The notes under the pieces were generated by a model that had not been told where the DNA came from, did no database searches, and saw nothing but the letters and a program-made list of their open reading frames with translations. Positions 1,646-33,766 of a stretch of 43,829 nt of DNA are shown one piece after another (within the stretch, counting starts at the first letter, position 1; every line of letters begins with the position of its first letter). Origin of the DNA: a virus. Location: the IMG/VR virus record IMGVR_UViG_3300024346_000138, positions 1 through 43,829 of that record. The stretch is one strand, 5' to 3'. Both the position numbers and the translations under genes were made by a program.

Positions 1646-1676
1646 AAGCCCCATATTTCAGGGGCTTATTTTTTTA
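1646..1676 (+). terminator. Hairpin with T-run oriented on the plus strand at the gp18/gp19 border
   Basis: AAGCCCC (1646-1652) pairs with GGGGCTT (1661-1667) around an 8-base loop. On the plus strand it is followed by ATTTTTTT, a good intrinsic terminator. On the minus strand the downstream sequence is TTAAATTTG, a weak one. The gp18 stop codon lies inside the T-run. It may let gp18 transcripts read partly into gp19 while blocking antisense transcription into gp18. Confidence 0.6.
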
Positions 1677-4600
1677 GCCTAGCCCTGCAATTTCTCCTGT
1701 ATTTTTCAAACGTAGTGGAATGTAAATAAATTCTACTGCTTTGACTGGTTCAATTGCAATGTCTAGATAAAGTTCATTACGATCAATTCTAGACGGTGTA
1801 TTGTTTGACTCGTCACACACAACTAGGTAGTCGTATAATGCTCTTTGTCCAACTAGCTCTAAACACAAACTTTCTGCTGCATTCTTAATTTGATCACGTG
1901 TGATCTTATCATTTGGTTCAAACAAGTAAGGCTTAGCTAGTTTGTTTAGCTGTGAGCGCATGTAGATAACCAAACGTGCTACGTTGATTCTGTCTAGCGC
2001 ACTTGCATTTCTTGCACGAGTCTTTTGACCAAATACAACTAATCCACTGCCGTTTAAGAATGTAATTGGGTTAACTGCATTTGAATAAAGCGTATCACGC
2101 TGTCCTTCGTTTAATGCAACACTTACAAATTCGCCTTCATTACTAATGTAACCTGTTGCAGTTGCATTAGTTACTCCGCCACGTCTTGTACCTGCTGGTG
2201 CAAACCATGGATAGCTAACTTGATCGCTTAGTGCAATAGTACGTAGTGCCATATGACTTGCAGGAACAACAACATTGTTACCTACGTTATCACTTGTAAA
2301 GCCTGCTGGGTAGTAAACACCCATGTACTCATCAAAGCTAACTAAACCATCGTCGTTATCTTCAACTGCTTTGCGAATGTTTTGTCCCCACTCATTAAGT
2401 GAAGTAGCATCTGGTGTTAGTCTCATTGGACTGTCACCTACGATAAATGCACTTAGTCCACGATCGTAGTTTAGGCTTACCATTTCACCAATTAGTTCTG
2501 GATAACCTGGTGTTGCCATTACATTAAAGATACGTGATTCGTCATCTCTAATATCATCATTACTGTTTAACATTCCTTGTAATGCTTTAACTACTACACT
2601 ACGCTGTGCTTTACGTCCAAAGCTTCCTGCGCCATCTGCTTGGTTAGGAGACTCTGTAACCCAACGGTGTGGGTAGTATGCTGACATACTTACGTCACCT
2701 GCACGACCATTTTCACCTGTTAAGTCAATGTAATCACGCTCAAAACGCTTAACGTTAAATCCGCTTCTGCGTAAGTTCCATAGCAACATACCTTTTGGAT
2801 ATAGTGCTGGGTCTGGAGCATCTGGATCTAAGTAATCGCTTGAAAGTAGATCTACAATTGTACCTACTGGAGCAACTGTAGCTGTACCGCCTGATGTACC
2901 ATAACGTGCATCTGCAAACAGTACACCATCTTCAGTAGTTTGGTCACCTGAGTCAACTAATACCCAACTTGCGTTTGAATAACGATATACAGTTGGATAA
3001 TTTTCAAGGTTACTTGTGTCAATCCATAAATCGTTATCTTGTAAGTTAGTTGCGCCATCTGATTGTCTAGTTGGTTCTGTTGCACTTACTAATGGACCAT
3101 TAGCATCTGTACTTGGATACAATGTCTTATAGCCTACCCATGTAGTACCGTTGTGTACCAACATGTCAACTTCGTCAACAACTGAACTGTACCACAATGC
3201 GCCGTCAGCTGCTAATGCTGCTGGTGCTGTGCCACTTGCTGTAAATGTAGATTTTTTCCAGTTACTTGCAGTTAATACACTAGTTTCGTCTGTGTATAAG
3301 TGTGCTGTTGTACTTGGGCTGTTTGCAACAAATTCGCTAAATCCAGCATCGGACATAGTAGAATTTGTATCAGCTGTAAATCTAATTTCACCGCCTTGTG
3401 CATGTGAAATTACAATTCTATTTTGTGAATCAACTACAGCACTTACATTTTCAAATCCTGCGCCGTTAATTGCACCTGCAAATAGTTCAGTATCGGATAC
3501 AGAACCTGTACCACTAAATGATACTGCAATGCCTGTATTAAATGCAGTTGCTCCTGCATCTGATTCTGAAATTGTTACACTGTATACTGTGCCGTTTCCA
3601 AATGATCCTGCAATTCTTGGTTGCCCAGTAATTGATGTTGCACCATTTTTAGAACGTGTATAAATTCGGAAGCTTGCTAGTGGCTCACCTACTTCTGTAA
3701 CATTTGTTTTTACATAAGATGTTCCTGCTGGTAGATTAAATCCGCCGCCACTTCTATCTAAGTTATATAATGCTGTAGCATGATCTGAATGTAAAGATGC
3801 ATTAACATCGTCAAATAATTCTGTTTCATCATTCCATACTTTAAATCTCCAACGTGCGCCTAAATTTGGTTCAGTAGTTTTAACCCATACACTGCCTGTT
3901 GGACGATTTTCTTCTGCTGTCTTAAATAGCGGAACAGATGTGTGCTTGCTAATTTGTAGTTCTGGTGATCTATATGCTCCAGCTGTAATACCAAGTATTG
4001 CGCCTAAACCAGCACTGTCTGCTACGTTAGCTACTTCGTCACTTGAACCGTCATTAAAAATAGCAATCTTGTTATCAACAACTTGTAAACTAATTCCTGT
4101 ACCAGCTAGTGCAGTATTACCACCTGTTACAATATCACCAAGTGTATCTGCTTCTGCAATTGTAACAACTGCTCCGCTTCCTGGTTGGATTGTAAGTGAT
4201 GCACCATTTGAATTTGAAACACTTGGTGAACTTACTGTACCAGATACTACAGACCAACTAGCTTTCCAATTTGTAGAACCTAACTCAACCCATTGATTTG
4301 AAATTCCTAATCTTGTTGCTGTTGCTGCGTCAACTCTATAATATGCTTTTAGCAAATCAGTTGTTGCTTTAATTGCATAACTGCCTACTGCGCCTTCGCT
4401 TTGCTTAGGAAATCCGTTTCCGTCAATTCTTGAAGCTTCGGTAATTACAATAGGTTGTTGTACACTAAATGACTGTCCGCCTGTTGTTCCTGCTGCTGAG
4501 CCGTTCCATGCAAAAATGCCATAGTTACTAGCGTCAGTGTCTAGCCAATAAGTGCCAGATACTGGATTAGCAGTTGGTTCGTCTGCTTGTGGATTAATTG

Positions 4601-4952
4601 CTCCCAAGTCAACATCGGCTCTAGTTACATATACTCTGCTGCTTATTCCTAATATAGAATATGCTGCTTGTAAACCGTATTCGTTTAGTTCGCCGCCGTG
4701 TACTGGGTTGTTATTAGCGTCTGTATAGAACGTTGGGTCTCCGAACGTTTCTGCTAACTCTCTTTGTGATGTAAGCAAGTATGGTTTACCTGCGTTTGCT
4801 GCCAGTGTTCCTGGTGCTGTGCCTGTGCCGCTGCCGTTAATTTTATTACTTGCAGAAGCTACAAAAATCATTGGTACAGTGCCTGGTTCGGCCGGCGTGT
4901 AAAAACTTTCATCAATTACACTAACCTGTACTCCTGGTGATACTAAAGCCAT
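1674..4952 (-). CDS. gp18: Tail sheath protein gp18 with a very large internal insertion
   Basis: This 1092-residue protein is the contractile tail sheath subunit of a T4-like phage. The N-terminal 'MALVSPGVQVSVIDES' and the C-terminal third (about 720-1092, with 'NVMATPGYPELI', 'MGVYYPAGFTSDN', 'YPWFAPAGTRRGGV', 'NPITFLNGSGLVVFGQKT' and 'VKAVEFIYIPLRL') are classic gp18 regions that form the sheath core and arms. T4 gp18 is about 659 residues. Most of the excess lies between about 125 and 715. That region holds at least four Trp-containing modules of the form G-x-x-W followed by an aromatic strand and a closing N/G-x-W ('SGTYWLDTD', 'TGSVWVKTT', 'DGALWYSS', 'DNDLWIDTS'), as seen in phage fibres. 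The insertion probably decorates the outside of the tail. AGGAGA precedes the start and a late box lies at 4985-4992. Confidence 0.95.
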   Translation of the reverse strand: MALVSPGVQVSVIDESFYTPAEPGTVPMIFVASASNKINGSGTGTAPGTLAANAGKPYLLTSQRELAETFGDPTFYTDANNNPVHGGELNEYGLQAAYSILGISSRVYVTRADVDLGAINPQADEPTANPVSGTYWLDTDASNYGIFAWNGSAAGTTGGQSFSVQQPIVITEASRIDGNGFPKQSEGAVGSYAIKATTDLLKAYYRVDAATATRLGISNQWVELGSTNWKASWSVVSGTVSSPSVSNSNGASLTIQPGSGAVVTIAEADTLGDIVTGGNTALAGTGISLQVVDNKIAIFNDGSSDEVANVADSAGLGAILGITAGAYRSPELQISKHTSVPLFKTAEENRPTGSVWVKTTEPNLGARWRFKVWNDETELFDDVNASLHSDHATALYNLDRSGGGFNLPAGTSYVKTNVTEVGEPLASFRIYTRSKNGATSITGQPRIAGSFGNGTVYSVTISESDAGATAFNTGIAVSFSGTGSVSDTELFAGAINGAGFENVSAVVDSQNRIVISHAQGGEIRFTADTNSTMSDAGFSEFVANSPSTTAHLYTDETSVLTASNWKKSTFTASGTAPAALAADGALWYSSVVDEVDMLVHNGTTWVGYKTLYPSTDANGPLVSATEPTRQSDGATNLQDNDLWIDTSNLENYPTVYRYSNASWVLVDSGDQTTEDGVLFADARYGTSGGTATVAPVGTIVDLLSSDYLDPDAPDPALYPKGMLLWNLRRSGFNVKRFERDYIDLTGENGRAGDVSMSAYYPHRWVTESPNQADGAGSFGRKAQRSVVVKALQGMLNSNDDIRDDESRIFNVMATPGYPELIGEMVSLNYDRGLSAFIVGDSPMRLTPDATSLNEWGQNIRKAVEDNDDGLVSFDEYMGVYYPAGFTSDNVGNNVVVPASHMALRTIALSDQVSYPWFAPAGTRRGGVTNATATGYISNEGEFVSVALNEGQRDTLYSNAVNPITFLNGSGLVVFGQKTRARNASALDRINVARLVIYMRSQLNKLAKPYLFEPNDKITRDQIKNAAESLCLELVGQRALYDYLVVCDESNNTPSRIDRNELYLDIAIEPVKAVEFIYIPLRLKNTGEIAGLG

Positions 4953-10308: not shown

Positions 10309-10566
10309 ATGTTTCCAAAGTTACAAGAAAACAACAAAGTCCAAAAAGAGTTAAAAAAGTTTGATGCAGCTATTAAACAAATAAAAAATATTCACGTTAA
10401 AAACTCGGCAGCAAACTTGTTACAAGAATTAAAAAACGAATATGAAATTATTGACGGATCTTTTTTAGGAACAAACGGTCCGGTAACTCCTGGCGTAGCA
10501 AGAGAATCTGCAATGAAAACAATGGATTTGCGTAGTAAACTTAATAGTCTGTTAAAGCGACGATAG
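10309..10566 (+). CDS. Small helical protein, unknown function
   Basis: The ATG at 10309 is chosen because TTGGAGAT lies just upstream and the previous stop ends at 10307. A longer reading frame from 10264 would overlap the cupin gene. The 85-residue product (MFPKLQENNKVQKELKKFDA...) is Lys-rich and largely alpha-helical, with a coiled-coil-like stretch over the first 50 residues. It then has 'DGSFLGTNGPVTPG' and a basic C-terminal helix ending LLKRR. I do not recognise it. Its place at the end of the gp14-gp15 operon suggests a virion-assembly or small accessory role. It overlaps the converging fibre gene by 15 bases. Confidence 0.6.
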   Translation: MFPKLQENNKVQKELKKFDAAIKQIKNIHVKNSAANLLQELKNEYEIIDGSFLGTNGPVTPGVARESAMKTMDLRSKLNSLLKRR

Positions 10567-12195
10567 TCTTTTTACAGTAATAGATCCAACCATTGCCGGA
10601 TGTAGTGTACATTGATATGCAAATGTACCACTAGTACTTTCCGGTATACTCCATATTAATGTTCCGCCATCTTGTGCTTGTGCGCTTGTATCTGCACTAG
10701 GAGTACCATCTTCTGCAATGTGTAATAAATTAGTAGTAATCGGAGTCAAAGTGCCGTCTAGGATTTCAAACGGATGTCCGCCTACATTAAGTTTAAAACT
10801 GATTTGCATTCCGCTGATAACAAAAATTGATGGATTGCTTCCAGTGTATAAAGGATTAAATGTATAAGCAGTTGCACCAATATTATCTACTTCAAAATGC
10901 ATTCCGCTTCGTACAACAAATTCGTCAATAGTTGCTAAGTTGGCAGTTTGTGCATCTCCTAACTGATCAAAATCAGTTACACCAGATGCTCCATTGTAAC
11001 TTACAGTAATCGTATCACCAGATACTGCTGTTGTAATACCAGCACCGCCAGCAACTGTTAATGTATCAGTTGCTGAATTTGCAGTTGTTGACCCAGTGTC
11101 ACCGGATACTGTTTCAAATAAATTTTGTGTTGCTCCGCCAGCAGACACAGTCCTAAAAGTAAAGTTTCCAAACCCATCTGTGCCAAGTACTTGATTGTTT
11201 GATCCATCAGCAATACCTAAGTCAGTTAAGTCAGCAGGTATAATACTGCCTGTATCTGTAAGATCTCCTAGGTCAGTAGGTATAGTAGGCGTACTAGATA
11301 AATCAGTATAAAGCCCGCTTGTTGCTACTGTTGCAAATCCTGCTTCTACTGGTGTTTGGTTTATCCATGAACTAGATGCGTTATCATATGCTAGGAGATC
11401 ATTGTCTCCTACTGATGTAATTGCTATATCAGTAATATTATCTATTGCTACACTTACCAAAGCACCAATTCCTGCTGCTGTAGGCGGAGTGTATCTAAAA
11501 ACACCTGTTGTGTTGTCGTATCCAATAGCGCCGTTACCACTAGCTGTAAGTTCATTGCCTACACTAAAGTCCGTTAATGTAGCAATGGCTGGAGTGTTAC
11601 TAAAGTTATTGTAATCTAAAAAGTATGTACTATCAAAGCCGTCAAGTGTATCAGCGTCAGTACCGCCGCCTCCAGATGTAGCGTCTGCTCCAGGTGCCCA
11701 ATTAGTTCCGTTCCATTTTAGCACCTGTCCACTTGTTGGAACACTGCTAGAAGTATCAACATCACTTAAAAAGTCAATTCCAAATGCATCCATATTTACA
11801 GTAAGATTAGAAGTGTCTGTTGATATCTCTGTAGAGATATTAGTACCGCCTAAAATATTTAAAGTATCGTCCTCACCGCTTGCTACTGCTGTACCGTCAT
11901 CTGATACTATATTCTTAAATACATCGCCTGCGCCGCCGCCTGCTTCGCCTGTAAAATTAAATGTAACAATATCGTCAACAACACTAGTTGCAATATTTGT
12001 GCCGCCTGCTAATGTTAATGTGTCAGCAACTCCGTCTGCGGTTGTTTGACCTGTGTCACCTTGGATTGTTGCAAAGATATTTGCGCCGGCTGCTGAAGAC
12101 GTTACATTCCAAGCAGTTCCGTCCCATTGCCACGTTGTATTACCGACAGTAAATACCTCGTTTAACCCGGGTGATGCTGGATAATTAATTGCCAT
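10552..12195 (-). CDS. Fibre-like virion protein with C-terminal amicyanin-like copper domain
   Basis: This 547-residue protein starts 'MAINYPASPGLNEVFTVGNTTWQWDGTAWNVT', a common phage fibre opening. It then has three copies of a roughly 45-residue repeat, 'F-x-T/N-I/V-x-GDTG-x-TTA...DTLT-V/L-AGG-x-I', near residues 38, 88 and 355. Between them is 'SGQVLKWNGTNWAPG', another fibre module. The last 110 residues form a cupredoxin-like domain: 'FVISGMQISFKLNVGGHPFEI' with His474, and 'TFAYQCTLHPAMVGSITV' with Cys529, His532 and Met535. Those four residues match the type 1 copper ligands and C-x2-H-x2-M spacing of amicyanin. It is probably a tail fibre or collar protein displaying a copper domain at its tip. 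AAAGGT precedes the start, 17 bases after the upstream gene. Confidence 0.8.
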   Translation of the reverse strand: MAINYPASPGLNEVFTVGNTTWQWDGTAWNVTSSAAGANIFATIQGDTGQTTADGVADTLTLAGGTNIATSVVDDIVTFNFTGEAGGGAGDVFKNIVSDDGTAVASGEDDTLNILGGTNISTEISTDTSNLTVNMDAFGIDFLSDVDTSSSVPTSGQVLKWNGTNWAPGADATSGGGGTDADTLDGFDSTYFLDYNNFSNTPAIATLTDFSVGNELTASGNGAIGYDNTTGVFRYTPPTAAGIGALVSVAIDNITDIAITSVGDNDLLAYDNASSSWINQTPVEAGFATVATSGLYTDLSSTPTIPTDLGDLTDTGSIIPADLTDLGIADGSNNQVLGTDGFGNFTFRTVSAGGATQNLFETVSGDTGSTTANSATDTLTVAGGAGITTAVSGDTITVSYNGASGVTDFDQLGDAQTANLATIDEFVVRSGMHFEVDNIGATAYTFNPLYTGSNPSIFVISGMQISFKLNVGGHPFEILDGTLTPITTNLLHIAEDGTPSADTSAQAQDGGTLIWSIPESTSGTFAYQCTLHPAMVGSITVKRLSSL

Positions 12196-12212: not shown

Positions 12213-13391
12213 TTATGCATAAGTGTTTAAACTTCCGTAGACAATCCAACTGCTCGATAATCGTAGTAAAGTAAATCCTACTATATCAGTTTGACTTGCA
12301 GTTCCGCTAGGCGCTGATCCGCCTTGCCATAATATTGTTTGCGCTACGCCGTCCACTTGAAGTGCTGTAGGCAAATACGGAGTTGATCCTTGCGTAATTA
12401 CTACAGCAATACTTATTGATTTATTATCGTCTGTTGGAACATTAGTGATATCCGCTGTAAAATTAGCAGCAGATGATGTATGTTGCCATAGCGATGATAT
12501 ACTAAAGTCGTGTGTTACAACTCCAGTTGCTCCTACTATTAATTGCACATTTTCTCTTGTGCCTGCAAGATCAGCTATTCCTGTAATACTAATGTCACCT
12601 GCAACACTTATATCGTTGCTTACATTTACTGCATCTGGTGCAGTTAAATTTATACTACTTGCACTTGTTATACCAGGAGTTCCTACTCCTGTTGATGTAA
12701 TGCTATCTGCAGAAATTGTTGTTGCTGTTATTTCGTCAAATGCTACATCGTCAGTTGTATTAAGAGATTGGTTATAAGAGGTGCCACCGCCGCCACCTCC
12801 GCCACCAGTTACAGTTGTAAATGAAAACGCTCCTGAACCGTTGGTTGTTAAAACTTGTCCTGAGCTGCCATCTGAAATTCCTAAGTCTAGTAAACTTATT
12901 GGTATAGTAGGTTTATTTTGTACGTTTGCCCAATCTAATATTGGAAGGGGATAACTTGGTTGTATCCATTGACTAGAATCAGTGTCAGTTACATATACAT
13001 AAATTTGGCCGTTAGTGCTGTTGAACCAAATATTTCCTTGTTCTGGTGATGTAGGTACTGTATCACCTACATCTACACTTGCTCCGCCGCCGCCTTCAAA
13101 CCCGCTTGCTGTAATTTTATTAGCAAATACAGTGTTATCGATGTTTGTAAGATCTGCAAGAGCTATTCCTGCTTCAGACGAAGCAGATTGAAATTGTGCT
13201 GTAGTTACATTAGTTAGATCGCTTCGAGCAATTTCAAAACCGCCAGTATCTTTACCGCTATACACTCTAAGTGTATTTGATGATTTACTAAAGAAAATCT
13301 CGCCGCTTGATCCTACATTCCGATCTAAAAAGTCAGTCGGACGTGGGATAATTCTAATTCTGTCTACTACAGGTGCTTGTGATGATGACAT
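12213..13391 (-). CDS. Fibre-like virion protein with a polyglycine hinge
   Basis: This 392-residue protein has an N-terminal 'IIPRPTDFLDRNVGSSGEIFFSKSSNTLRVYSG', then 'GDTVPTSPEQGNIWFNSTNGQIYVYV...SQWIQP', the Trp-module common in marine phage fibres. Next come 'LDWANVQNKPTIP', 'SSGQVLTTNGSGAFSFTTV' and a run of eight glycines near residue 200 that should act as a hinge. A Ser/Thr-rich shaft ('ITATTISADSITSTG', 'VNVSNDISVAGDISITG') and a beta-rich C-terminus ('LLRLSSSWIVYGSL') follow. It is first in a two-gene late operon with the cupredoxin-bearing fibre. AAGGAG precedes the start. Its ligand is unknown. Confidence 0.75.
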   Translation of the reverse strand: MSSSQAPVVDRIRIIPRPTDFLDRNVGSSGEIFFSKSSNTLRVYSGKDTGGFEIARSDLTNVTTAQFQSASSEAGIALADLTNIDNTVFANKITASGFEGGGGASVDVGDTVPTSPEQGNIWFNSTNGQIYVYVTDTDSSQWIQPSYPLPILDWANVQNKPTIPISLLDLGISDGSSGQVLTTNGSGAFSFTTVTGGGGGGGGTSYNQSLNTTDDVAFDEITATTISADSITSTGVGTPGITSASSINLTAPDAVNVSNDISVAGDISITGIADLAGTRENVQLIVGATGVVTHDFSISSLWQHTSSAANFTADITNVPTDDNKSISIAVVITQGSTPYLPTALQVDGVAQTILWQGGSAPSGTASQTDIVGFTLLRLSSSWIVYGSLNTYA

Positions 13392-13832: not shown

Positions 13833-14563
13833 GATTTGCTTCCAAAATACTTATAGTATATATCTTTAATTAATGTTCGTTTTTGTTTAAACGTATGATT
13901 CATTAAAAATTTAGATTTAGTAACCCAATTTAAATCTTTTTCTGTTGCATTACGCACTTCCAAGTCAAAGATTTTTTCTGACAATGGTATTATCTGTGCT
14001 AATGGTTGTCCTGCTTTAATCATAAATTTACCTTTAGGTACATTACAGTATGCTTGTATGTTTATTTCAGAACTTATGCCTGGGTCTAATATACCCGAAC
14101 TACTTTCAAGTTCAAAATTATCAGGATAAGGTATTGGAATCATTAGAAACTTTACACCTTTAGGAGCAATAATGTGCCACGGCATATTAATCTTTAATAA
14201 CGGTCCAACAGTCCAAGGTTTTACAGGCATTAATGTTTCGACGCCAGTCTGTTGTCTTGAAATAATGTCTTTACCACTTGCTAGATCAACTATATCTGAT
14301 GTAGGGATAGTCCATTTATAATTTCCTGTGCCATCTGTTTCTATTAAAACATCGTGCCACATTGGAATAATGTATCCAGTTTTTGCTAAATCAAAAATAC
14401 CCGGGCATTGGTATATGTGATCCATTCTGCCGTCGGCTGCATCTAATTTTCTTTTAAAATCGTTTCTGGCTCTATTCATCCAGTCTGGTTTATATTGCTT
14501 TGCTGGTATGATCGGAACTGCTTCAGCTAAGCCGTCAATAGTACTAAAAAATTCAATTTTCAT
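13829..14563 (-). CDS. DUF6065-like beta-barrel protein of the modification operon
   Basis: This 244-residue protein carries 'GYIIPMWHDVLIETDGTGNYKWTI', 'KINMPWHIIAPKGVKFLMIPIPYPDN', 'SSGILDPGISSEINIQAYCNVPKGKFMIKAGQPLAQIIPL' and a helical C-terminus. The pattern P-x-G-Y-x-x-x-x-x-P...G-I-x-D...P-x-G-x-x-I-x-x-G-x-P-x-A-Q-x-I-P resembles, from memory, the DUF6065 family, which keeps company with oxygenases and halogenases. The closing 'AGQPLAQIIP' also recalls dUTPase/dCTP-deaminase barrels, but the catalytic motifs of those enzymes are not evident. It overlaps the preceding gene by 11 bases and the next by 4. Its role is unknown; it may bind the operon's product or substrate. Confidence 0.6.
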   Translation of the reverse strand: MKIEFFSTIDGLAEAVPIIPAKQYKPDWMNRARNDFKRKLDAADGRMDHIYQCPGIFDLAKTGYIIPMWHDVLIETDGTGNYKWTIPTSDIVDLASGKDIISRQQTGVETLMPVKPWTVGPLLKINMPWHIIAPKGVKFLMIPIPYPDNFELESSSGILDPGISSEINIQAYCNVPKGKFMIKAGQPLAQIIPLSEKIFDLEVRNATEKDLNWVTKSKFLMNHTFKQKRTLIKDIYYKYFGSKS

Positions 14564-15131
14564 TTTTAAACCTTATGTCAAATGCAATATTAATTCTAGA
14601 TTTATTAGATAAATTCGGTTCAACTTCGTGCGGTAACCAACTAGGCCACATAATTAAATCTTTGTCCTTAGGTGAAAAGAAAAAGTCTCTAGTAAATGGA
14701 CTTTTTGTATTACACTCACCTAATGTATTTGCAGGATTCATAATACGGAGATCACCTGTACCTGATCCTTGTATATAATACACTCCGGATAATATTCCAG
14801 GCTTGTGTGCATGCATAACATTTCTCGAACCGATATTATTTACGTTTGCCCAGTAATGAATGTCAAACTGTTGATTAGAATACATTGCAAAAGTATTATC
14901 AATATCTGAATAATATTTAAATTGTTCTTTTACTGATGTTTCTATTGCCTCTAATAAAAATTTAATATTATGTAATTGTTGAGTACCTCGCCAGCAACCG
15001 TCGTTACTAAACGAACTATTAGGAAACTTTGTACTGTTTTCTAATATTTCTTGTTTTAATAAATCTAAATTACTATCTGAACCAACTTCATTATAATTAA
15101 AAAGTCCAGCATGTAGGATTGTTGGGATCAT
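14553..15131 (-). CDS. 2OG-Fe(II) oxygenase-like protein (second in operon)
   Basis: This 192-residue protein looks like the TIGR02466-type putative 2-oxoglutarate/Fe(II) oxygenases that hydroxylate or desaturate small substrates. Key residues are H107-x-H109 in 'RNVMHAHKPGILSGVYYIQG', His168 in 'DLIMWPSWLPHEVEPN', and Arg179 in 'SRINIAFDIRF', the position expected to hold 2-oxoglutarate. The classic HxD is read here as HxH, as also in the sister gene at 16643. It overlaps the halogenase stop by 4 bases and the next gene by 11. It shares the family layout with the 199-residue protein upstream, but overall identity looks low. Confidence 0.8.
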   Translation of the reverse strand: MIPTILHAGLFNYNEVGSDSNLDLLKQEILENSTKFPNSSFSNDGCWRGTQQLHNIKFLLEAIETSVKEQFKYYSDIDNTFAMYSNQQFDIHYWANVNNIGSRNVMHAHKPGILSGVYYIQGSGTGDLRIMNPANTLGECNTKSPFTRDFFFSPKDKDLIMWPSWLPHEVEPNLSNKSRINIAFDIRFKNEN

Positions 15132-16639
15132 CTATCATACCAATCAGTTAAGTACTCGTATTGATTTTTAAACATGTTTTCAACTAAATCTAATCTTGCA
15201 TTAGTGCAATCAATAAAATACTTTCCGTATCGTTCTTGAGATTCTGTTAAGTACGGCTCTACGTCTTTATATGCGCCGCCTGCGTGTAATACACTAAACC
15301 ATTGAGTAATATTAAACATACTACTTGGTGTTAAATTCATAAAGCGTTGAGGATAAGGCAAAAATGCTGATAATATATCTTTAATAAACTTTGGCATTTC
15401 TTCTAATTTTTGCTCACGTATTTCTTTCCAGTACGGTGTATCATTACGTGAACTAAAGTAATAGTGCGCCCAAACAAATGCTAGAATTTCTTCTGACATT
15501 TCACTAAAGCCTCTATTAATAAATCCTTTTGTTTCAGTATTCCAAATATTTCCAGTATTATTCAATAAATCAACAATGCTCATAACTGCACCTGTTGTAA
15601 ACGTAATGCCTGTTGCTTCTAACGGTTCAACAAATCCTGCACTTAGTCCAACTGCAATTACATTTTTTACTGCAATTTCTTTGTGATACCCGCATTTCAT
15701 TTTTAAATGATTTGCAGGAGCTACGTATTCTCCAATTGACTCACGCAACTCTGCTTCAGCGTCTTCTTTAGATATATGCTTACTAGAATATACATACCCA
15801 TTTCCTACTCTTGTAAAAATAGGAATAGTAAAGCGCCAACCTGCTTTCATTGTAGTTGCTTTTGTATACGGAAAACATTCTTCTTCTGGATTTTTATATT
15901 GTTTAGGTATAACTACTGCACTATCATTTAGCAGTATGTCGTTATAACTATGGAAGGGAATATTAAGTTCTTTTTCAAGTAATCTACTTTGAAATCCTGT
16001 ACAATCAATATATAAGTCTGCAGAATACTTATTTCCATTAGAGTCTATTAATGCTGTTATACCGTTTTGATCTTTTTGTATATTGTCTATTTTAGCATCA
16101 ATATGTTGTATTGTGTCGCCTAATATTTCTTTAAGAGTTTTAATTATATTATGAGCATTAAAATGTACTGCACCAAAGTGTAATGGCCCCATACGATGAT
16201 TTACATCTAAGTAGTCATCAAATTTTTGACATATGTTTTGTTTTGCAAGACGGTATGCAGGATGATAGTCTTTAAATTCTTTATTTGTTTTACCTATAAA
16301 GTAATCAGAGATATAATAATCTTCTGCAATTAATGTATTATCAGGAGAGTCGTTATCTACAAAGTACGGCTCATCATTCCATCCCTCAAGCTCAACACCA
16401 TACTTAAAACTAGCATCACTTGTATTCATCCATTGCTTTGGTGGTATACCGCATTTACCTAAAAAGTGTGCGGTGGCAGGTTGTGTTCCTTCACCAACTC
16501 CGATTGGCCCTGCACTGACATCTTCTATTAATGTTATTTTAGTGGGACGTTGTAAATTTCTAGACATATATGCAGCAGTTAGCCAGCCGCTTGTTCCGCC
16601 GCCAAAGATTATTATGTGTTGTACTTTATTTAAAAACAT
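15128..16639 (-). CDS. Flavin-dependent (tryptophan-type) halogenase
   Basis: This 503-residue protein has the full tryptophan-halogenase plan. 'HIIIFGGGTSGW' (GGGTSG at 13-18) binds FAD. 'GVGEGTQPATAHFLGKCGIPPKQWM' follows, then 'SFKYGVELEGW' with Lys79, the position of the catalytic lysine that carries or guides HOX in PrnA. 'AGWRFTIPIF' is the W-x-W-x-I-P signature with its second Trp replaced by Phe270. 'VGLSAGFVEPLEATGI' carries Glu341, the partner of the lysine. 'YIDCTGFQSRLL' is also typical. The enzyme would oxidise chloride or bromide with FADH2 and O2. A flavin reductase partner is not in the window. It overlaps the following oxygenase by 4 bases and follows the other oxygenase after 3 bases. 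The substrate is unknown and need not be free tryptophan. Confidence 0.92.
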   Translation of the reverse strand: MFLNKVQHIIIFGGGTSGWLTAAYMSRNLQRPTKITLIEDVSAGPIGVGEGTQPATAHFLGKCGIPPKQWMNTSDASFKYGVELEGWNDEPYFVDNDSPDNTLIAEDYYISDYFIGKTNKEFKDYHPAYRLAKQNICQKFDDYLDVNHRMGPLHFGAVHFNAHNIIKTLKEILGDTIQHIDAKIDNIQKDQNGITALIDSNGNKYSADLYIDCTGFQSRLLEKELNIPFHSYNDILLNDSAVVIPKQYKNPEEECFPYTKATTMKAGWRFTIPIFTRVGNGYVYSSKHISKEDAEAELRESIGEYVAPANHLKMKCGYHKEIAVKNVIAVGLSAGFVEPLEATGITFTTGAVMSIVDLLNNTGNIWNTETKGFINRGFSEMSEEILAFVWAHYYFSSRNDTPYWKEIREQKLEEMPKFIKDILSAFLPYPQRFMNLTPSSMFNITQWFSVLHAGGAYKDVEPYLTESQERYGKYFIDCTNARLDLVENMFKNQYEYLTDWYDR

Positions 16640-16642
16640 TTT

Positions 16643-17242
16643 TTATTCCTGATATGTGTATCTAAAATCAGCATTAAATGCCAATGATATTCTAGTATTA
16701 GTTGTCCGGTTGGGCATAACTTTATGTAATAGCCAATTTGGAAATAATAAAAGCATGCTTTGCTCTACTGCTATATTTACAATATTTGTATAAGTTGGTG
16801 TCTGATGTGGGAACGATACTACAAACGGATTTGGGCTTTTGAATTGTATATCGCCACTGCCTGGAGTAAATTTATGATAATATACTCCGCTTACTACATT
16901 TGGTTGATACCCGTGTTCGTGAAATCCAATTAACTGTTCAGTAGAAAATTTATTAAGCCACGAACTGTTTACATTAATACTATCAGTTTGATAACGTTGC
17001 CCAGTTTGTTCTAAGTAGTTTTTAACATGTTGTTTTATAACATCATTAGTAACTTTCATATCAAAAGTTGGTATGATATTCATCATATCATTACTAAAGG
17101 TTGTTTCAGCTGTATCGTTATCAGGTTGCCAATCATTTTTAAATATAGCACTAGACACTACATTATCTATTTCAATATCTAATAAGTCAGTATCTTCAAC
17201 AGTATGAATATAGATTGGGGTAGAGAAAAAGTTTTCAATCAT
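16643..17242 (-). CDS. 2OG-Fe(II) oxygenase-like protein (first in operon)
   Basis: This 199-residue protein is similar in plan to TIGR02466-type oxygenases: 'MIENFFSTPIYIHTVED' at the start, 'SSWLNKFSTEQLIGFHEHGYQPNVVSGVYYHK' with H108-x-H110, 'MLLLFPNWLLHKVMPNRTTNTRISLAFN' with His173 and Arg184. It would use O2, Fe(II) and 2-oxoglutarate to hydroxylate an unknown substrate. It sits between the methyltransferase fusion (4-base ATGA overlap) and the halogenase (3-base gap), so the three are made together. The HxH in place of HxD may still bind iron or indicate a halide-accepting site. Confidence 0.82.
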   Translation of the reverse strand: MIENFFSTPIYIHTVEDTDLLDIEIDNVVSSAIFKNDWQPDNDTAETTFSNDMMNIIPTFDMKVTNDVIKQHVKNYLEQTGQRYQTDSINVNSSWLNKFSTEQLIGFHEHGYQPNVVSGVYYHKFTPGSGDIQFKSPNPFVVSFPHQTPTYTNIVNIAVEQSMLLLFPNWLLHKVMPNRTTNTRISLAFNADFRYTYQE

Positions 17243-18906
17243 TTAGCTACAACAAGTATATATAACCCGTTCCACCATTGACTAATATCTTCAACATCAT
17301 TTAGCATTAGTTTTTCGTATGTAACATAACCTCCGCACTCATTAATGCCTTCTCTAGCACCATTAACTACTCCGTCCCAATTTGCATCATCAAATATTAA
17401 AACAGTTTCGTTTTTAAAAGTATTCCAATAATGTTTAACTACATTCTTTGTAGATTCTTGATCATGAGGACCATCGTAGAAAAACATGCTAAATGCATTT
17501 GACATATTTGTAGTATCAATTGCAAACATATCATTATTAATTACTTCAATTCTATTATTGCCTTTATACGGTTCAACATTTTTAATAAACTCATCTAAAG
17601 AGTTAGGAGGAGTAGTACTTCCATTAGCTGGCTGTATTTGCTCTTCCCACTTATCGATAGCAACAGCAAGAAGCATATTGTCTTTTAATACCGAACTTAG
17701 AGTTGCTCCTAAATACGATCCAATTTCTAAATAAGAGTCGACACCTTTTGCAATAGAGTTAAGAAGAGTTTGTACTCTAGGTGAAGTTAGCCCAGGTATG
17801 TCAACTTTTGTTGTAGGAATACCGCTTGACTCAACACAAGTAACTACATGCTTAACTAAATCGCTGTGATCAATTTCTGTTTTTGCTTTGTAAATTTTAT
17901 CGCAAAATTGACATTCCCAACAGTCAAATTTACAGTTCTTAATAAGTTTGCGCCATGCGTCAATAGGACGTTCTTTTAAATTTGTATCTTCTAAATATTG
18001 GTTAAATGTTTCTATTAATATTTCTTCGTTATCGTCCCATTTTTTAATTATAGTCATGGTTTCGAAAAGTCTACTTACTGCTTCTCTACCATGCATTTTA
18101 AATACGTCAATACCGCAATCATTAATCAATTCTTCCCAATCTTCTTTCCATGGCGGCAGATCAGAAGTTTTTAAATGTACTGCTGGATCTATAAAGTCCC
18201 ATTTAGGACAACTTACTCGACTTATAGGATCATTAAAGTATTGCGGATCGTTACCTTGTCTAGTATTATTATATTCAAAATGTTCTACCATCATAGGGCA
18301 GTTACCTAAACACCCTTCATTTGCTAATAAACTAATTTTAATTTCTTTTCCTAAATTATCCTTAATCCATTCTTTAGCGGCTTTAATGCGTAATAGCGTA
18401 TCTCTGTCACGCATTAAGTCTCTATCTAAATTGATATAATCAAACCCAACTTTAGCAAGATTTACTATTTCAGTTGCAGTTCTTACATCACGTAAAATAG
18501 TATTCTTAACCATTAACTCAGGAAATGCACGTTTTATTTGACCAGTTGCCATCCAGTGTGTATGTGGTATAGTAGCTATACGTACACCTGCATCATATAT
18601 AGGTTTGAAATTCTTTATAAAGAGATCTAAATTCTTTTGTGTCGGGGGAACTTGTATATTATTAAATGTTGCACTGATCGGAATATCTAAACTTTTTTGT
18701 ATATAGATAGCCATGTCAATAGCATGAGAATAGTCTTCGTTATGTATAAAGATATCTCCCATTGCATCTTGTGCAAAGGGGGAAATCCTCGAAGTAAAAT
18801 ATACATCGTAAATTAAATGTTTATATGTTTTTAGAAAAGAAATAAACTCGTCGAATTCTTCTTTACTTAATTTAGGATTTAAAGGTACACTGAATATCTT
18901 TTGCAT
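17239..18906 (-). CDS. Fusion: U32-like Cys-rich domain plus class I SAM methyltransferase
   Basis: This 555-residue protein has two parts. Residues 1-345 look like a TIM-barrel of the U32-peptidase/UbiU-V kind: 'YDVYFTS...', 'IPISATFNN', 'ANEGCLGNCPMMVEH' (Cys199, Cys203), 'VSCPKWDF' (Cys233) and 'NCKFDCWECQFCDK' (Cys325, 329, 332, 335). The cysteines could ligate an iron-sulfur cluster or zinc. Residues about 370-555 are a Rossmann methyltransferase of the Methyltransf_24 type: 'SYLEIGSYLGATLSSVL' is the SAM loop and 'FFYDGPHDQEST' the acidic motif. The methyltransferase call is firm; the U32-like call is tentative. It is the first gene of the modification operon, with a consensus sigma70 promoter. 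The ribosome site (GAGTGAG) is weak and lies within the operator arm. Confidence 0.75.
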   Translation of the reverse strand: MQKIFSVPLNPKLSKEEFDEFISFLKTYKHLIYDVYFTSRISPFAQDAMGDIFIHNEDYSHAIDMAIYIQKSLDIPISATFNNIQVPPTQKNLDLFIKNFKPIYDAGVRIATIPHTHWMATGQIKRAFPELMVKNTILRDVRTATEIVNLAKVGFDYINLDRDLMRDRDTLLRIKAAKEWIKDNLGKEIKISLLANEGCLGNCPMMVEHFEYNNTRQGNDPQYFNDPISRVSCPKWDFIDPAVHLKTSDLPPWKEDWEELINDCGIDVFKMHGREAVSRLFETMTIIKKWDDNEEILIETFNQYLEDTNLKERPIDAWRKLIKNCKFDCWECQFCDKIYKAKTEIDHSDLVKHVVTCVESSGIPTTKVDIPGLTSPRVQTLLNSIAKGVDSYLEIGSYLGATLSSVLKDNMLLAVAIDKWEEQIQPANGSTTPPNSLDEFIKNVEPYKGNNRIEVINNDMFAIDTTNMSNAFSMFFYDGPHDQESTKNVVKHYWNTFKNETVLIFDDANWDGVVNGAREGINECGGYVTYEKLMLNDVEDISQWWNGLYILVVAK

Positions 18907-31000: not shown

Positions 31001-33766
31001 TGGTACACCTAACTCATGTGGCTTAGGTAAAATAGCATTTTCTTTAATACCTGTTCCAATTGCAACTCTGTCAGCAATATTTCTTGCTAGGCGCTTTGTT
31101 TCAGTAGCTACAGGAGTAGTTTCTGCGTAAGGCCACGTAACATCTTGTGTTGTTGTATTGCCTGTAGTTGGAGTAACTGCTGAACCTATTACAACATCTC
31201 CTACAATTGCTTCAATTCTTTTAATTGCTTGGTAACTGTAGCTGATATCTTTTTTGTCTGTTAATGTACTATTAATAGTTGTTCTTGGCTGTACATTAGT
31301 AGAACGAAGTTCGTCTCCTATAATACAGCATTCTGCTGGAACAACAATTGGAAGTACTTCGTAGTACTTTCCGGTTGACACTTTAATTAATGTATTTCTA
31401 ATTAATCTTTCAGGTATATTAGTAGCAACACCTGCTGTTATTGCATCTGTAATAATCTTTGCTAGACCTTGAATGTCTGCATAAACACTTTCTGTTCTTA
31501 GTAATTCATTAGTAAACTGTACTGATACTCTAGTACTATTATCACCATTTGTTGTTTGATAGTTAACTGCTGGTGCTGTTTGATCTAATATATTTTCAAT
31601 TAAAGTAATGCCGTAATTTATAGAAGCATTAGTTTCAGCTTTTTGTGTTAAGTATGGTGATCCTACTGTATCATTTACATAAGATAATGCTGCTTCTCTA
31701 GAACGTACATTACCGCCGTGTGTAATATCCCAAATTAGAGCATCAACGATTAGACCCATATCTCTTTCACATTTTTCTGTCTTGTAATCAAATGCTGTAG
31801 TAAATGGTGCAAGGTTATTTGTTATTTGGTACTGTGTCCATTCAACAATTTCTCTTTGTATAAATCTTCTGTTAAGTTCTAATAACTGTGCTGCATCTGG
31901 ATTTCTAGCACCTTGCTCAACTTGCTGTGCTGCATACTTAATTGTTTTATAAGGTTTATCAATTGTTGTACCATAAATTGGAGCAGGTAAATCTAAACCG
32001 TGTTCTGCAACATAATAAACATCAGCAGTAGAACCAATAAATGCCCATTCCGGAATACCAGTTGAACTTACTGTTAATACTTGTCCGTCTCTACCTACTG
32101 GTAGTCTAGTTGGTGCTGAACCACTATAATAAACTAGGTCGCCTTTGGTTGTAAGTACACTAGACTCTGAACCAATTGCTAATGCACTCCAAAACTGTCC
32201 GCTATCTGCTAAGTCTGGGCGTGATCCTTCAGCACCTGAGCTTAGTGAACTATAATCGTCGCCTTCTGAAATATGTCCTAATATACATACATATGAATTG
32301 TCGCCATAACGTACAACATCACCTTCGTAATACTGTGCATCATCTCTCCACTCACCTCTCCACTCAAAACCGTAGTTTAATCTTGTCCAATAAACTTCGT
32401 TAGGTGGTATTTGGTTTTGGTGATCTGCAATACAACGATATGTATAGCCGCCGTGTCTTACAACGTTACCTACTTGATATTCGTATTGTGACGAATCTGC
32501 TCCCCAGTCGCCGATGAATTTAAATCCTTCAGTAAATAGGTCCCAGCTTGCTGGAACAACAGTTGGTCGATCATTTTCGTTATCTGTTTTACTAATATAC
32601 TGGTTACCACCGTAGCGTACAATGTCGCCTGGTTGGTAAACACCATTATATGCCCATTCATTTTCAAATTGGAAGCCTTCTACAAACTTTTCCCAGTTTG
32701 CACTATCGTCTGTAAATGCAGCAGCACTTGTATGATAGCTAGTTGCAATCCATAAGCTCGCACCGTACTTTACAACATCATTAACAAGATATTTTCTACC
32801 TGTAAGCCATTCATTTTGATAGCGGATACTTTGATTAAATGCGTCCCACTTTATTAAGTCATTTTCTAAACCTAAGCCTGTGCCAATTCCTGTAGACTGG
32901 TGCGGATCGATACAAACAAAACTTGCACTACCGTACTTAACAAAATCACTTAAACGGTAATGGAAATCTTCGTGCCATTCGCCCTTCCAATCTAATCCAT
33001 CAGCAAATACATTCCAATTGGCTAAATCTGTTTCTAAACCTAAGCTAATAATTTCTGCACTTGCATTGCTGCTCATGCCAGCATGTTGATAGCAGAAATA
33101 ATGAAGTGTGTCTGGAGCGTCATCTGGAACAGTAATACGCATTTCTCTAGTAGTAGCAGCAGCAAATCCTGCATCGTATGCTGCGGCATCAACTACTTCG
33201 ACAGCATCTAGGAAATATGTTACACCGTCAGTATATATTGCTCCGCTGTTGTGTGTTCCGTCTTTAGTAGTACTAATAACCATTGGATGTCTAGCAACGC
33301 CGGCACCAGCGAATAAGTTAGTAGCACTATTTTGCTGCCATATATATGTGTTGCCTCTTACCATTTGAATGTCTGGAGCCGCAACGCCGTCTATATAAAA
33401 TACGCCGTTACTTACATTAGGGTCGTCTGCTACTGTGATTACATATGTTTCGGAGTCGGACTGTGTGGTAGAAGTATGAATGGCATCACAAATATATAAC
33501 CTTGCACCGTACTTTACAATATCATTGTACACATATGATGTGCCGTTAGCCCAGTCACCCTTCCAAGTTTGACCATCACTAACTAAATTCCACTTTGTCG
33601 GAACTACATCTAAATCTGTAAAAAAGTTAGCATCACTGCTATGTCCTTCTACACATATATACGCTTTCCCACCAAAAGCAATTACGTCATCCTTGTAGTA
33701 AACAGTGCCTGTGGTCCAGTCACCTTTCCATACAAAGCGTATTCTACCTAACTTAAATTCTGCCAT
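25043..33766 (-). CDS. Giant fibre/baseplate protein, 2907 residues, multi-domain
   Basis: In order: seven Trp-rich modules of the form W-x(6-9)-Y-x(3)-D-x-V-x-x-G-x-x-Y (about 12-500), like CBM5/12 repeats. A cupredoxin-like domain is inserted after the second (about 100-245; His160, Cys225, His228, Met231 with C-x2-H-x2-M spacing). Then a 'DVYYVAEHGLDLPAP...KPYKTIKYA' beta-helix entry and 'CCIIGDELRST', six helical repeats with K/I-C-x-R/Q-D (about 670-1800), a beta-helix block 'LDPGWGPDDKRVWI...GALHNGGNDS' (about 1870-1990), Asp-box-like 'YSLDGVSW' blades (about 2280-2540), and a C-terminus 'DQDGNFRVGDLFSIEQATG...VPTQRAVKAYIEAQ'. It is a host-surface binding virion protein of the type in marine T4-like phages. 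A late box lies at 33790-33797 with TGGAG before the ATG. Confidence 0.85.
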   Translation of the reverse strand: MAEFKLGRIRFVWKGDWTTGTVYYKDDVIAFGGKAYICVEGHSSDANFFTDLDVVPTKWNLVSDGQTWKGDWANGTSYVYNDIVKYGARLYICDAIHTSTTQSDSETYVITVADDPNVSNGVFYIDGVAAPDIQMVRGNTYIWQQNSATNLFAGAGVARHPMVISTTKDGTHNSGAIYTDGVTYFLDAVEVVDAAAYDAGFAAATTREMRITVPDDAPDTLHYFCYQHAGMSSNASAEIISLGLETDLANWNVFADGLDWKGEWHEDFHYRLSDFVKYGSASFVCIDPHQSTGIGTGLGLENDLIKWDAFNQSIRYQNEWLTGRKYLVNDVVKYGASLWIATSYHTSAAAFTDDSANWEKFVEGFQFENEWAYNGVYQPGDIVRYGGNQYISKTDNENDRPTVVPASWDLFTEGFKFIGDWGADSSQYEYQVGNVVRHGGYTYRCIADHQNQIPPNEVYWTRLNYGFEWRGEWRDDAQYYEGDVVRYGDNSYVCILGHISEGDDYSSLSSGAEGSRPDLADSGQFWSALAIGSESSVLTTKGDLVYYSGSAPTRLPVGRDGQVLTVSSTGIPEWAFIGSTADVYYVAEHGLDLPAPIYGTTIDKPYKTIKYAAQQVEQGARNPDAAQLLELNRRFIQREIVEWTQYQITNNLAPFTTAFDYKTEKCERDMGLIVDALIWDITHGGNVRSREAALSYVNDTVGSPYLTQKAETNASINYGITLIENILDQTAPAVNYQTTNGDNSTRVSVQFTNELLRTESVYADIQGLAKIITDAITAGVATNIPERLIRNTLIKVSTGKYYEVLPIVVPAECCIIGDELRSTNVQPRTTINSTLTDKKDISYSYQAIKRIEAIVGDVVIGSAVTPTTGNTTTQDVTWPYAETTPVATETKRLARNIADRVAIGTGIKENAILPKPHELGVPEYGYAIELNASNKEFIQEEIIAYIADQYPNLEYGKTKCKQDVGFIIDAVAYDLVYGGNWQTYNATKSYYDGSGNVNKITGLITNGDFATTTDWTITNGAFAITGNELVAAGGTAGTALQTVYTTPGQEYTVNVSVTHTADGASVFARNPNSDTALATAIDLTSTSSVSYTFTATALQTEIVFETDAAGIVDIDDVSIDTPQKLATIASYGYLRDLLQTVGRDITVTPTYQTGVTQISGKPGNATVSNAIAALFNNTVIPAVTNGISAASITYPSVAGASVGLQSDSTNLVAALPVIQEKTIDFINANFGSFKYNSAKCRRDLTNIITDTAYDIALGTNYNATFNGIAYQRPNNAYNLQNQRVETVGAIRNARDQYRVLLGSGNDLTRLNTAYNEIVDIIQNGSLGTAMPGDGTVNALVLPSPSGVDQNKVDAKDNLQANIAFMKDDVIAYIAQNYGSLVYDSTKCARDVEYIVNAASYDILYGGNQATSRICESYFVNGTIQVDGQTTETAAAYNHLASIMSDIVQETSVTAQTGNTTLQTTLGTPASATEGSAVQALVETVSDVIDGTTTLSAVLGAVSYPSVTWADAEFTTAKTTIDNSRSDVILNVIQFITNTYNDFKYDHAKCSRDLGLIIDAARYDWMLGTNYASVNAGLSYLRRTSNKVTGPQKTATIAANQFALGLAVAEISEATAITGINETWDLVQDTIWAGSNEGGNRQTDDIEVYNAVRQLEVNKEFIVDEAIAYVNDYFRSTVTDTTVTIGGASGGVDLYTLTVADTGWLKVGMEIAFENPNNILTNTNFFLNNKFYVADVFSATEFAVSNTVGGVYVQVDGTNNQFIVKTAYTYNRAICARDIKEYINAMKWDLVWGQEWKRTYTNDVVVYRPAAYKTRLAARYYVNAMIGSQEEDFYYLRNGTGLRLQTMQGLNGDLGASNIYGTRRPTAGAYASLDPGWGPDDKRVWITARSPYVQNCTTFGFGATGQRIDGALHNGGNDSIVSNDFTQVISDGIGAHILNNGRAELVSVFTYYSHMGYLAESGGRVRATNGNNSYGKFGSVAEGVDPEETATSAVVDNLTQYNATVGLVNTDANQILNIEFTHAGNDYTEAELEIFGGGANEVVITDEFRDLGVFEGRIIPSETEGVTTGGAGYTTVSNVAQSGSLTGIFISATDGNLSSAYPGTRIQLVGGAGNGQYAIIQTYDAGTKEVTVTEWNHVVPGTPIVAPNATTTYQIEPAVAFSAPTNTATQATITSNTYTDATYVTTSAQYTNVVTLTESDGLGATFDVTRNGEKYYVTLNQGGAGYGRLNHCEIPGTSLGGATPLNDLVITITTVDVNGAVVDFDFSGYGQKGVFVAIPDANIGGAYSVDGVTWVSNSLPDAGASNSWDNITSGLIDDGSSTFKQSVAIAISEGGPAAYSLDGVAWTSVTLPGTFATAGASMVAFGQVAESLGRFIAISGNDTDVVYSDNGGVTWSTTGTVLTGTNYSALANGAGKFVALRSGTTDTMYSADGLVWSAGTGLPSAPWIDISWGNGRFIAIATDGTAAYSLDGVSWTQQDLPTGTYSKIAYGQGMFAVTSNSNELTYSEYGLTWATEGGAGFNFSAGGAIAFGNPDKTPKFVAIGSGITADVMNVRLGVQARGRASTANEQVFAIRLEEPGSNYTSTPTITVTDPNNTEDVNIQVRVGTGLLANPTFANRGTGFITATSDVNENASNGSADFFQSGAFVAVKRLSSRPVAGSNIEFTSLPGRVFKLVNTVSFRGTNEGSFTGFLQVSPTLEIDEAPTEGTELELRIRFSQVRLTGHDFLDIGTGNFADSNYPNEVNGPPVNLPDQNKETTDSAGGRVFFTATDQDGNFRVGDLFSIEQATGVATLDAEAFNIAGLQELSLGTVTLGGNSASITEFSTDPFFTANSDSVVPTQRAVKAYIEAQIGGGGASLNVNSVTAGDIFINTNQITTVSGELININANVNFTKSVTGIPLALNYMLR
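28380..31800 (-). repeat. Six diverged repeats around a Cys-Arg/Gln-Asp motif in the giant fibre
   Basis: Within the 2907-residue protein, six segments share Y-x-x-x-[KI]-C-x-[RQ]-D-x-x-x-I-x-[ND]-A-x-x-[YW]-D-x-x-x-G. Examples are 'EKCERDMGLIVDALIWDITHG', 'AKCRRDLTNIITDTAYDIALG' and 'AKCSRDLGLIIDAARYDWMLG'. Spacing is roughly 150-250 residues. Most copies are followed by a Tyr- or Arg-rich helix. The 1823-residue paralogue has only one degenerate counterpart without the Cys. Confidence 0.75.
32265..33730 (-). repeat. Seven Trp-rich carbohydrate-binding-like modules (2907-residue fibre)
   Basis: Each module contains a [GN]-[DE]-W start, a Tyr, D-[IVF]-V, then [YF]-G and an aromatic strand, e.g. 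'KGDWANGTSYVYNDIVKYG', 'NEWLTGRKYLVNDVVKYG', 'GEWRDDAQYYEGDVVRYG'. Similar to CBM5/12 chitin-binding modules by motif. A cupredoxin-like domain splits the array after the second module. Confidence 0.75.

What the first reader, a model, noticed from the sequence alone, without database searches (positions are those of the whole stretch)
10552..12195. Amicyanin-like type 1 copper site at the tip of a fibre protein
The last ~110 residues of the 547-residue fibre carry His474, Cys529, His532 and Met535 in a cupredoxin-like strand pattern ('GGHPFEI' ... 'CTLHPAM'). Amicyanin has C-T-P-H-P-F-M with the same C-x2-H-x2-M ligand spacing and an upstream His. All four blue-copper ligands are therefore kept, suggesting real metal binding on the virion surface. 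Copper could stabilise the fibre tip, sense or scavenge copper at a host outer membrane, or bind a copper-loaded host protein.
Basis: partly seen in the sequence, partly recalled or inferred. Interest (0 to 1): 0.78.

Follow-up and report, generated by a model that had tools for sequence, protein, structure and literature searches.

The report
Copper-protein fold on phage tail fibre
The end of a tail-fibre protein of a probably marine virus of bacteria is built like the blue copper proteins that carry electrons in cells, all four copper-holding residues are kept in many related phages, and no paper found here describes it.

Summary
Residues 424-547 of the 547-aa fibre (minus strand) fold confidently as a cupredoxin (AlphaFold pLDDT 92.7). 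Solved structures closest in fold are almost all copper proteins. His474, Cys529, His532 and Met535 align column for column with amicyanin's four copper ligands. A search model with the ligand columns masked found the domain widely. The two His and the Cys are either all present (131 of 206 non-redundant copies) or all absent (66), rarely in between (9). In 80 loci fetched by a neighbouring gene, the C-terminal copy kept Cys and first His in 58 of 58 cases, while sister copies in an adjacent protein have mostly lost the ligands. The domain is the C-terminus of PHROG 677 proteins ("baseplate wedge tail fiber connector") in marine cyanophages, whose N-terminus matches T4 gp10/gp9. It is therefore not an oddity of one phage, and this phage has a second intact copy at 33035-33460. 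The site is probably a real type 1 copper site. Copper binding itself, position at the physical tip, and any role (tip stabilisation, receptor binding, copper piracy, redox) are unproven. I favour a metal-locked receptor-binding or assembly head loaded with copper after lysis. No paper describing it was found.

The parts
10552..12195 (-). 547-aa tail fibre protein with the C-terminal cupredoxin domain
   Evidence: PHROG 677 (tail, 'baseplate wedge tail fiber protein connector') E 6.6e-61, PHROG 9627 and 9729
10927..12195 (-). residues 1-423: N-terminal anchor-like part (MAINYP..TWQWDGTAW) and shaft of short beta repeats
   Evidence: sequence; PHROG 677 match of the shaft without the cupredoxin domain, E 3.1e-25
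10555..10926 (-). residues 424-547: cupredoxin domain
   Evidence: AlphaFold2 pLDDT 92.7, pTM 0.85; VIA Z 12.1 to copper nitrite reductase; Foldseek hits rusticyanin, amicyanin, pseudoazurin, plastocyanin
10774..10776 (-). His474, first type 1 copper ligand (GGHPF)
   Evidence: aligned with amicyanin His53; invariant in close homologues
10609..10611 (-). Cys529, thiolate ligand, the only Cys of the protein
10600..10602 (-). His532, second His ligand
10591..10593 (-). Met535, axial ligand
   Evidence: axial position is Gln or Lys in 6 of 131 copies that keep H-C-H
33035..33460 (-). second cupredoxin-type domain with all four ligands (H58, C123, H126, M129 of this stretch; codons ending at 33289, 33094, 33085, 33076), inside the 2907-aa fibre protein 25043-33766
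   Evidence: hhalign to the first domain 98.2%, E 5.8e-14; AlphaFold2 pLDDT 81.1; VIA Z 8.9 to two-domain laccase
12213..13391 (-). upstream neighbour: second fibre protein, no copper ligands; an N-terminus like its own is joined to the cupredoxin in homologue L017

Best explanation
The C-terminus of this tail fibre is a cupredoxin domain with an intact type 1 (blue) copper site: two His, one Cys, axial Met. In PHROG 677 relatives of marine T4-like phages the protein is an N-terminal baseplate anchor (T4 gp10/gp9-like in cyanophages), a shaft of short repeats and this domain at the C-terminus. The virion would thus carry multiple copies projecting from the baseplate. The domain most likely binds one copper ion, picked up after the particle leaves the copper-poor cytoplasm. 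The metal most likely locks the ligand loops so that the head keeps a stable surface for binding a host receptor or a partner tail protein. Shown: fold prediction, ligand set, conservation, place at the C-terminus, family context. Inferred: copper as the metal, loading after lysis, the distal position in the particle, and the stabilising/binding role. My separate estimates: cupredoxin with type 1 ligand set 0.93; copper bound in nature 0.75; structural/binding role as stated 0.45-0.55.
For: Fold: pLDDT 92.7, Z 12.1 to CuNiR and 10.6 to the N-terminal cupredoxin domain of Hyphomicrobium NirK at 21% identity. Profile search of all PDB sequences: 42 of 43 matches at E<=1 are copper proteins or CuA domains (best 2.1e-4 CuNiR, 5.3e-4 amicyanin). 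Ligands align with amicyanin's four. Conservation with ligand columns masked: 131 copies with H+C+H, 66 with none, 9 between, of 206 at 90% non-redundancy; independence predicts 58 and 8. Sample fetched by the neighbouring gp8 gene: 54 C-terminal copies HCHM, 4 more keep H and C with a small loop insertion, none lost, while internal sister copies next door have mostly lost the ligands. Cys529 is the only Cys, so an intramolecular disulfide is excluded. Baseplate anchoring: the Syn9 homologue's N-terminus matches T4 gp10 E 1.6e-7 and gp9 E 4.7e-5.
Against: No measurement of metal. Ligand-free subfamilies keep the sequence family (and presumably the fold), so the fold need not require the metal. 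The tree needs only about 4-5 changes between ligand-bearing and ligand-free states (2 forced by well-supported branches), so the all-or-none pattern rests on few independent events. P0001 itself has no detectable T4 gp9/gp10 N-terminus.
Confidence: 0.55

Rival explanations
1. The domain is a receptor-binding cupredoxin head whose site binds zinc or another thiophilic metal in the virion, not copper.
For: General knowledge: cupredoxin sites also bind Zn(II) and Hg(II), and recombinant azurin often carries zinc. Phage proteins are assembled in the cytoplasm, where free copper is almost absent.
Against: The axial Met and the short C-x2-H-x2-M loop are what copper sites have; Met is kept in 125 of 131 copies with H-C-H, and a zinc site would not need it.
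Confidence: 0.15
2. Copper piracy ('Trojan horse'): the copper-loaded head is offered to a host outer-membrane copper-uptake receptor, as proposed for iron in other phage fibres.
For: The analogous iron hypothesis for HxH fibres of T4 and marine phages exists in the literature (PMC11705849). The domain is at a fibre C-terminus and widespread in aquatic phages.
Against: No receptor is known and no link with host copper genes was seen in the window; related fibres carry versions without ligands.
Confidence: 0.12
3. Redox role: the site exchanges electrons with host surface or periplasmic partners, or senses the redox state to trigger tail contraction.
For: Type 1 sites are electron-transfer sites; the best structural relatives are electron-transfer or oxidase domains.
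Against: No redox partner is evident among the fibre genes, and nothing in phage entry is known to need electrons (general knowledge).
Confidence: 0.07
4. Metal-free scaffold: the domain is only an Ig-like beta-sandwich adhesin, and the four residues are inherited leftovers.
For: Ligand-free subfamilies exist in related fibre proteins (SSQM, YNQM, NDEI and others).
Against: Leftovers would decay one by one; intermediates are rare (9 of 206), and all four are kept between domains only 22-50% identical overall.
Confidence: 0.11

Closest known systems
Amicyanin and the plastocyanin/azurin family (PF00127)
   Same: Cupredoxin fold; H...C-x2-H-x2-M with the shortest ligand loop (CTPHPFM against CTLHPAM); C-terminal M-x-G-x-V strand
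   Different: Not a periplasmic electron carrier; no signal peptide; sits at the end of a phage fibre; H-P-F instead of P-H-N at the first ligand; below Pfam and NCBIfam cut-offs
Copper nitrite reductase, rusticyanin and two-domain laccase cupredoxin domains
   Same: Closest by fold (Z up to 12.1; Foldseek E about 1e-4). From general knowledge, H-P-F resembles the type 1 His motif of multicopper oxidases
   Different: No type 2/3 copper ligands, single domain, no enzyme context
PHROG 677, cyanophage gp9/gp10-like 'baseplate wedge tail fiber connector' (Syn9, S-SSM5, P-TIM40)
   Same: Shares shaft and C-terminal cupredoxin with intact ligands
   Different: The Syn9 member begins with a T4 gp10/gp9-like anchor that P0001 lacks; none of the records seen is annotated as a copper protein
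HxH iron-binding tail fibres (T4 gp37, alterophage R22Y; PMC11705849)
   Same: Metal site in a phage fibre, including marine phages
   Different: Octahedral iron coordinated by HxH histidines of the fibre trimer; here a one-chain His2-Cys-Met site; P0001 has no HxH
Cyanophage plastocyanin (petE auxiliary gene)
   Same: A type 1 copper protein encoded by the same phages
   Different: Separate small gene that scores 66-71 bits with PF00127; the fibre domain is a different branch

Membership tests
Cupredoxin / type 1 copper protein | Greek-key cupredoxin beta-sandwich | tested here: met
   (prediction, no experimental structure)
Cupredoxin / type 1 copper protein | His-Cys-His plus axial Met/Gln in the canonical order and spacing | tested here: met
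   alignment with amicyanin
Cupredoxin / type 1 copper protein | Ligands conserved together in relatives | tested here: met
   few independent losses
Cupredoxin / type 1 copper protein | Ligand side chains within bonding distance | tested here: inconclusive
Cupredoxin / type 1 copper protein | Bound copper, ~600 nm band, small hyperfine coupling | not testable with these tools
   needs protein
Amicyanin (TIGR02657) | Score over the curated cut-off | tested here: not met
   16.2 bits against 110.2
Pfam PF00127 Copper-bind | Score over the gathering cut-off | tested here: not met
   12.3 bits against 21.2; 17 of 28 relatives match weakly, best E 0.0088
PHROG 677 (cyanophage gp9-like) | Shaft and C-terminal part of the profile | tested here: met
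   E 6.6e-61, best stretch 329-542 on profile 192-409 of 412
T4 gp9/gp10 baseplate wedge proteins | T4 gp10/gp9 N-terminal baseplate anchor | tested here: not met
   no PDB match for P0001; present in the Syn9 homologue
HxH iron fibre (T4 gp37 type) | HxH motifs | tested here: not met
   His only at 433, 474, 492, 532

The most novel reading that the evidence does not exclude
A large share of marine T4-like phages display copper-loaded blue-copper heads on baseplate-anchored fibres and use the metal to recognise hosts (copper-receptor piracy or a copper-dependent adhesion switch), making virions a carrier of copper in the sea.
Probability: 0.12. Interest if true: 0.9.

Novelty: new variant of a known kind. 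Interest (0 to 1): 0.66.

Why it matters
Metal in phage tails is so far known mainly as iron (HxH fibres, tail spikes). A conserved one-chain type 1 copper site at the C-terminus of a fibre family found in many marine T4-like phages would add a new metal and a new kind of site to virions. It also gives a direct, cheap test: the domain is about 120 residues, is carried by culturable cyanophages (Syn9, S-SSM5, P-SSM2), and should turn blue with copper. It would make phage adsorption potentially sensitive to copper, and phages part of the marine copper budget.

Tried and rejected
Literature: searches for cupredoxin, blue copper, plastocyanin-like or copper-binding with phage tail/baseplate found no description of such a domain; the library lacks most subscription journals, so this is weak evidence of novelty. 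Rejected: a phage petE plastocyanin gene (that is a separate gene in cyanophages); an intramolecular disulfide as the reason for the conserved Cys (only Cys in the protein); an HxH iron site (no HxH). The first alignment A1 was picked with a C..H..M pattern, so its invariance is circular; the masked model and gp8-anchored sample were made for that reason. A scan with the second domain found only an identical sequence. A genome scan for cellular relatives gave five hits, at least some perhaps phage-derived contigs in MAGs or single-cell genomes (not resolved).

Full report
OBSERVATION. The ORF lies on the minus strand, 12195 to 10552, 547 aa; the plus strand is closed. His474, Cys529, His532 and Met535 are as stated. 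Cys529 is the only cysteine. C-x2-H-x2-M occurs twice in 14,033 residues of the window's proteins against 0.036 expected from shuffling, and both places prove to be cupredoxin-type domains.

FOLD. Residues 424-547 were modelled with 27 relatives: mean pLDDT 92.7, pTM 0.85, nearly all beta. VIA-align gives Z 12.1 (rmsd 2.3-2.4, 112 aligned) to Geobacillus copper nitrite reductase and Z 10.6 (2.1 A, 94 aligned, 21% identity) to the N-terminal cupredoxin of Hyphomicrobium NirK. Foldseek lists NirK, rusticyanin, amicyanin, pseudoazurin, laccase and plastocyanin at E about 1e-4. A sequence profile of the family against the whole PDB returns 43 matches up to E 1, and all but one (an antibody chain) are copper proteins or CuA domains. 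hhalign with amicyanin (P-value 3.4e-6) puts the four residues opposite H53, C92, H95 and M98; the typed amicyanin sequence was checked as 1AAC. Single-sequence scans with Pfam and NCBIfam stay below cut-off, so this is a distant branch, not a member of the named families. I could not read model coordinates, so ligand distances are not measured.

CONSERVATION. Alignment A1 shows P32, G39, H51, P52, Y104, C106, H109 and M112 invariant, but A1 was chosen by the motif. Two checks without that bias followed. First, profile models with the four ligand columns masked were run over 331 loci. Of 206 copies at 90% non-redundancy, 131 have H, C and H, 66 have none, and 9 are intermediate; independence would give 58 and 8. 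The same picture holds at 60% non-redundancy: 32, 26 and 8 of 66. When H-C-H is present the axial residue is Met in 125, Gln in 5, Lys in 1. Second, 80 loci were fetched by similarity to gp8, a neighbouring baseplate gene of cyanophages. In these, 54 C-terminal copies are HCHM and 4 more keep H and C with a small loop insertion; none has lost the site. Internal copies in the adjacent baseplate protein of the same phages have mostly lost the ligands. Twenty-two loci show no C-terminal copy, through truncation or because a subclade has other proteins there. On a tree of 84 domains the ligand-free state needs about 4 changes (2 forced by strong branches), too few for a formal test of correlated loss.

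CONTEXT. The protein belongs by its shaft and C-terminus to PHROG 677, 'baseplate wedge tail fiber protein connector'. The same domain ends that protein in many Synechococcus and Prochlorococcus phages, and the Syn9 member's first ~58 residues match T4 gp10 and gp9. So in cyanophages the plan is baseplate anchor, shaft, cupredoxin head. P0001 has another N-terminus. Heads and anchors are exchanged: in L017 the N-terminus resembles that of the window's neighbouring fibre 12213-13391, and in L028 anchor and head are joined in only 280 aa. The window's tail sheath is nearest to jumbo myoviruses such as PA5oct and Atu_ph07, so the host need not be a cyanobacterium. A second cupredoxin-type domain with all four ligands lies in the 2907-aa fibre protein (33035-33460).

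MECHANISM. Shown: a cupredoxin-type domain with a full type 1 ligand set, kept under strong constraint at the C-terminus of a tail fibre. Likely (about 0.75): it binds copper. Inferred (about 0.45 to 0.55): copper enters after lysis, because the cytoplasm holds almost no free copper, and it rigidifies a receptor- or partner-binding head. Ligand-free subfamilies argue that the head can work without metal where other residues take over. Copper piracy, redox triggering, a zinc site and a metal-free scaffold are kept as rivals.

NOVELTY. The fold and site are known; their use as the head of a tail fibre was not found in the papers searched, while iron HxH sites in fibres are described. Hence 'new variant of a known kind'.

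Noticed in passing
window 33035-33460 (-): Second cupredoxin-type domain with all four ligands near the N-terminus of the 2907-aa fibre protein.
   Followed up: yes
window 14553-17242 (-): A tryptophan halogenase (15128-16639) sits between two 2OG-Fe(II) oxygenases inside the tail-fibre gene cluster; the role in a phage is unclear.
   Followed up: no
window 17239-18906 (-): 555-aa protein with a C-terminal Methyltransf_24 domain and a cysteine-containing N-terminal half without Pfam match.
   Followed up: no
window 1674-4952 (-): Tail sheath of 1092 aa, nearest to jumbo phages of Pseudomonas and Agrobacterium (PA5oct, Atu_ph07), suggesting a large phage genome of which the window is a fragment.
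   Followed up: partly
L023 222-584, L034 4519-4884, L006 2132-2464: Copies with axial Gln instead of Met (C-x2-H-x2-Q), as in stellacyanin-type sites; L130 has Lys.
   Followed up: partly
L069, L066, L070, L248-L326: Ligand-free cupredoxin-type domains in related fibre proteins (NDEI, SSQM, YNQM and others), possibly natural apo versions.
   Followed up: partly
L082 (Prochlorococcus phage P-SSM2) 11581-14736: The cupredoxin fibre gene lies three genes upstream of piuC, annotated as ferrochelatase.
   Followed up: no
BFVD matches A0A7D3QVK4 and A0A481Z6J5: Giant viruses (Fadolivirus, Pithovirus, Marseillevirus) have small proteins of similar predicted fold, one named blue type 1 copper protein.
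   Followed up: no
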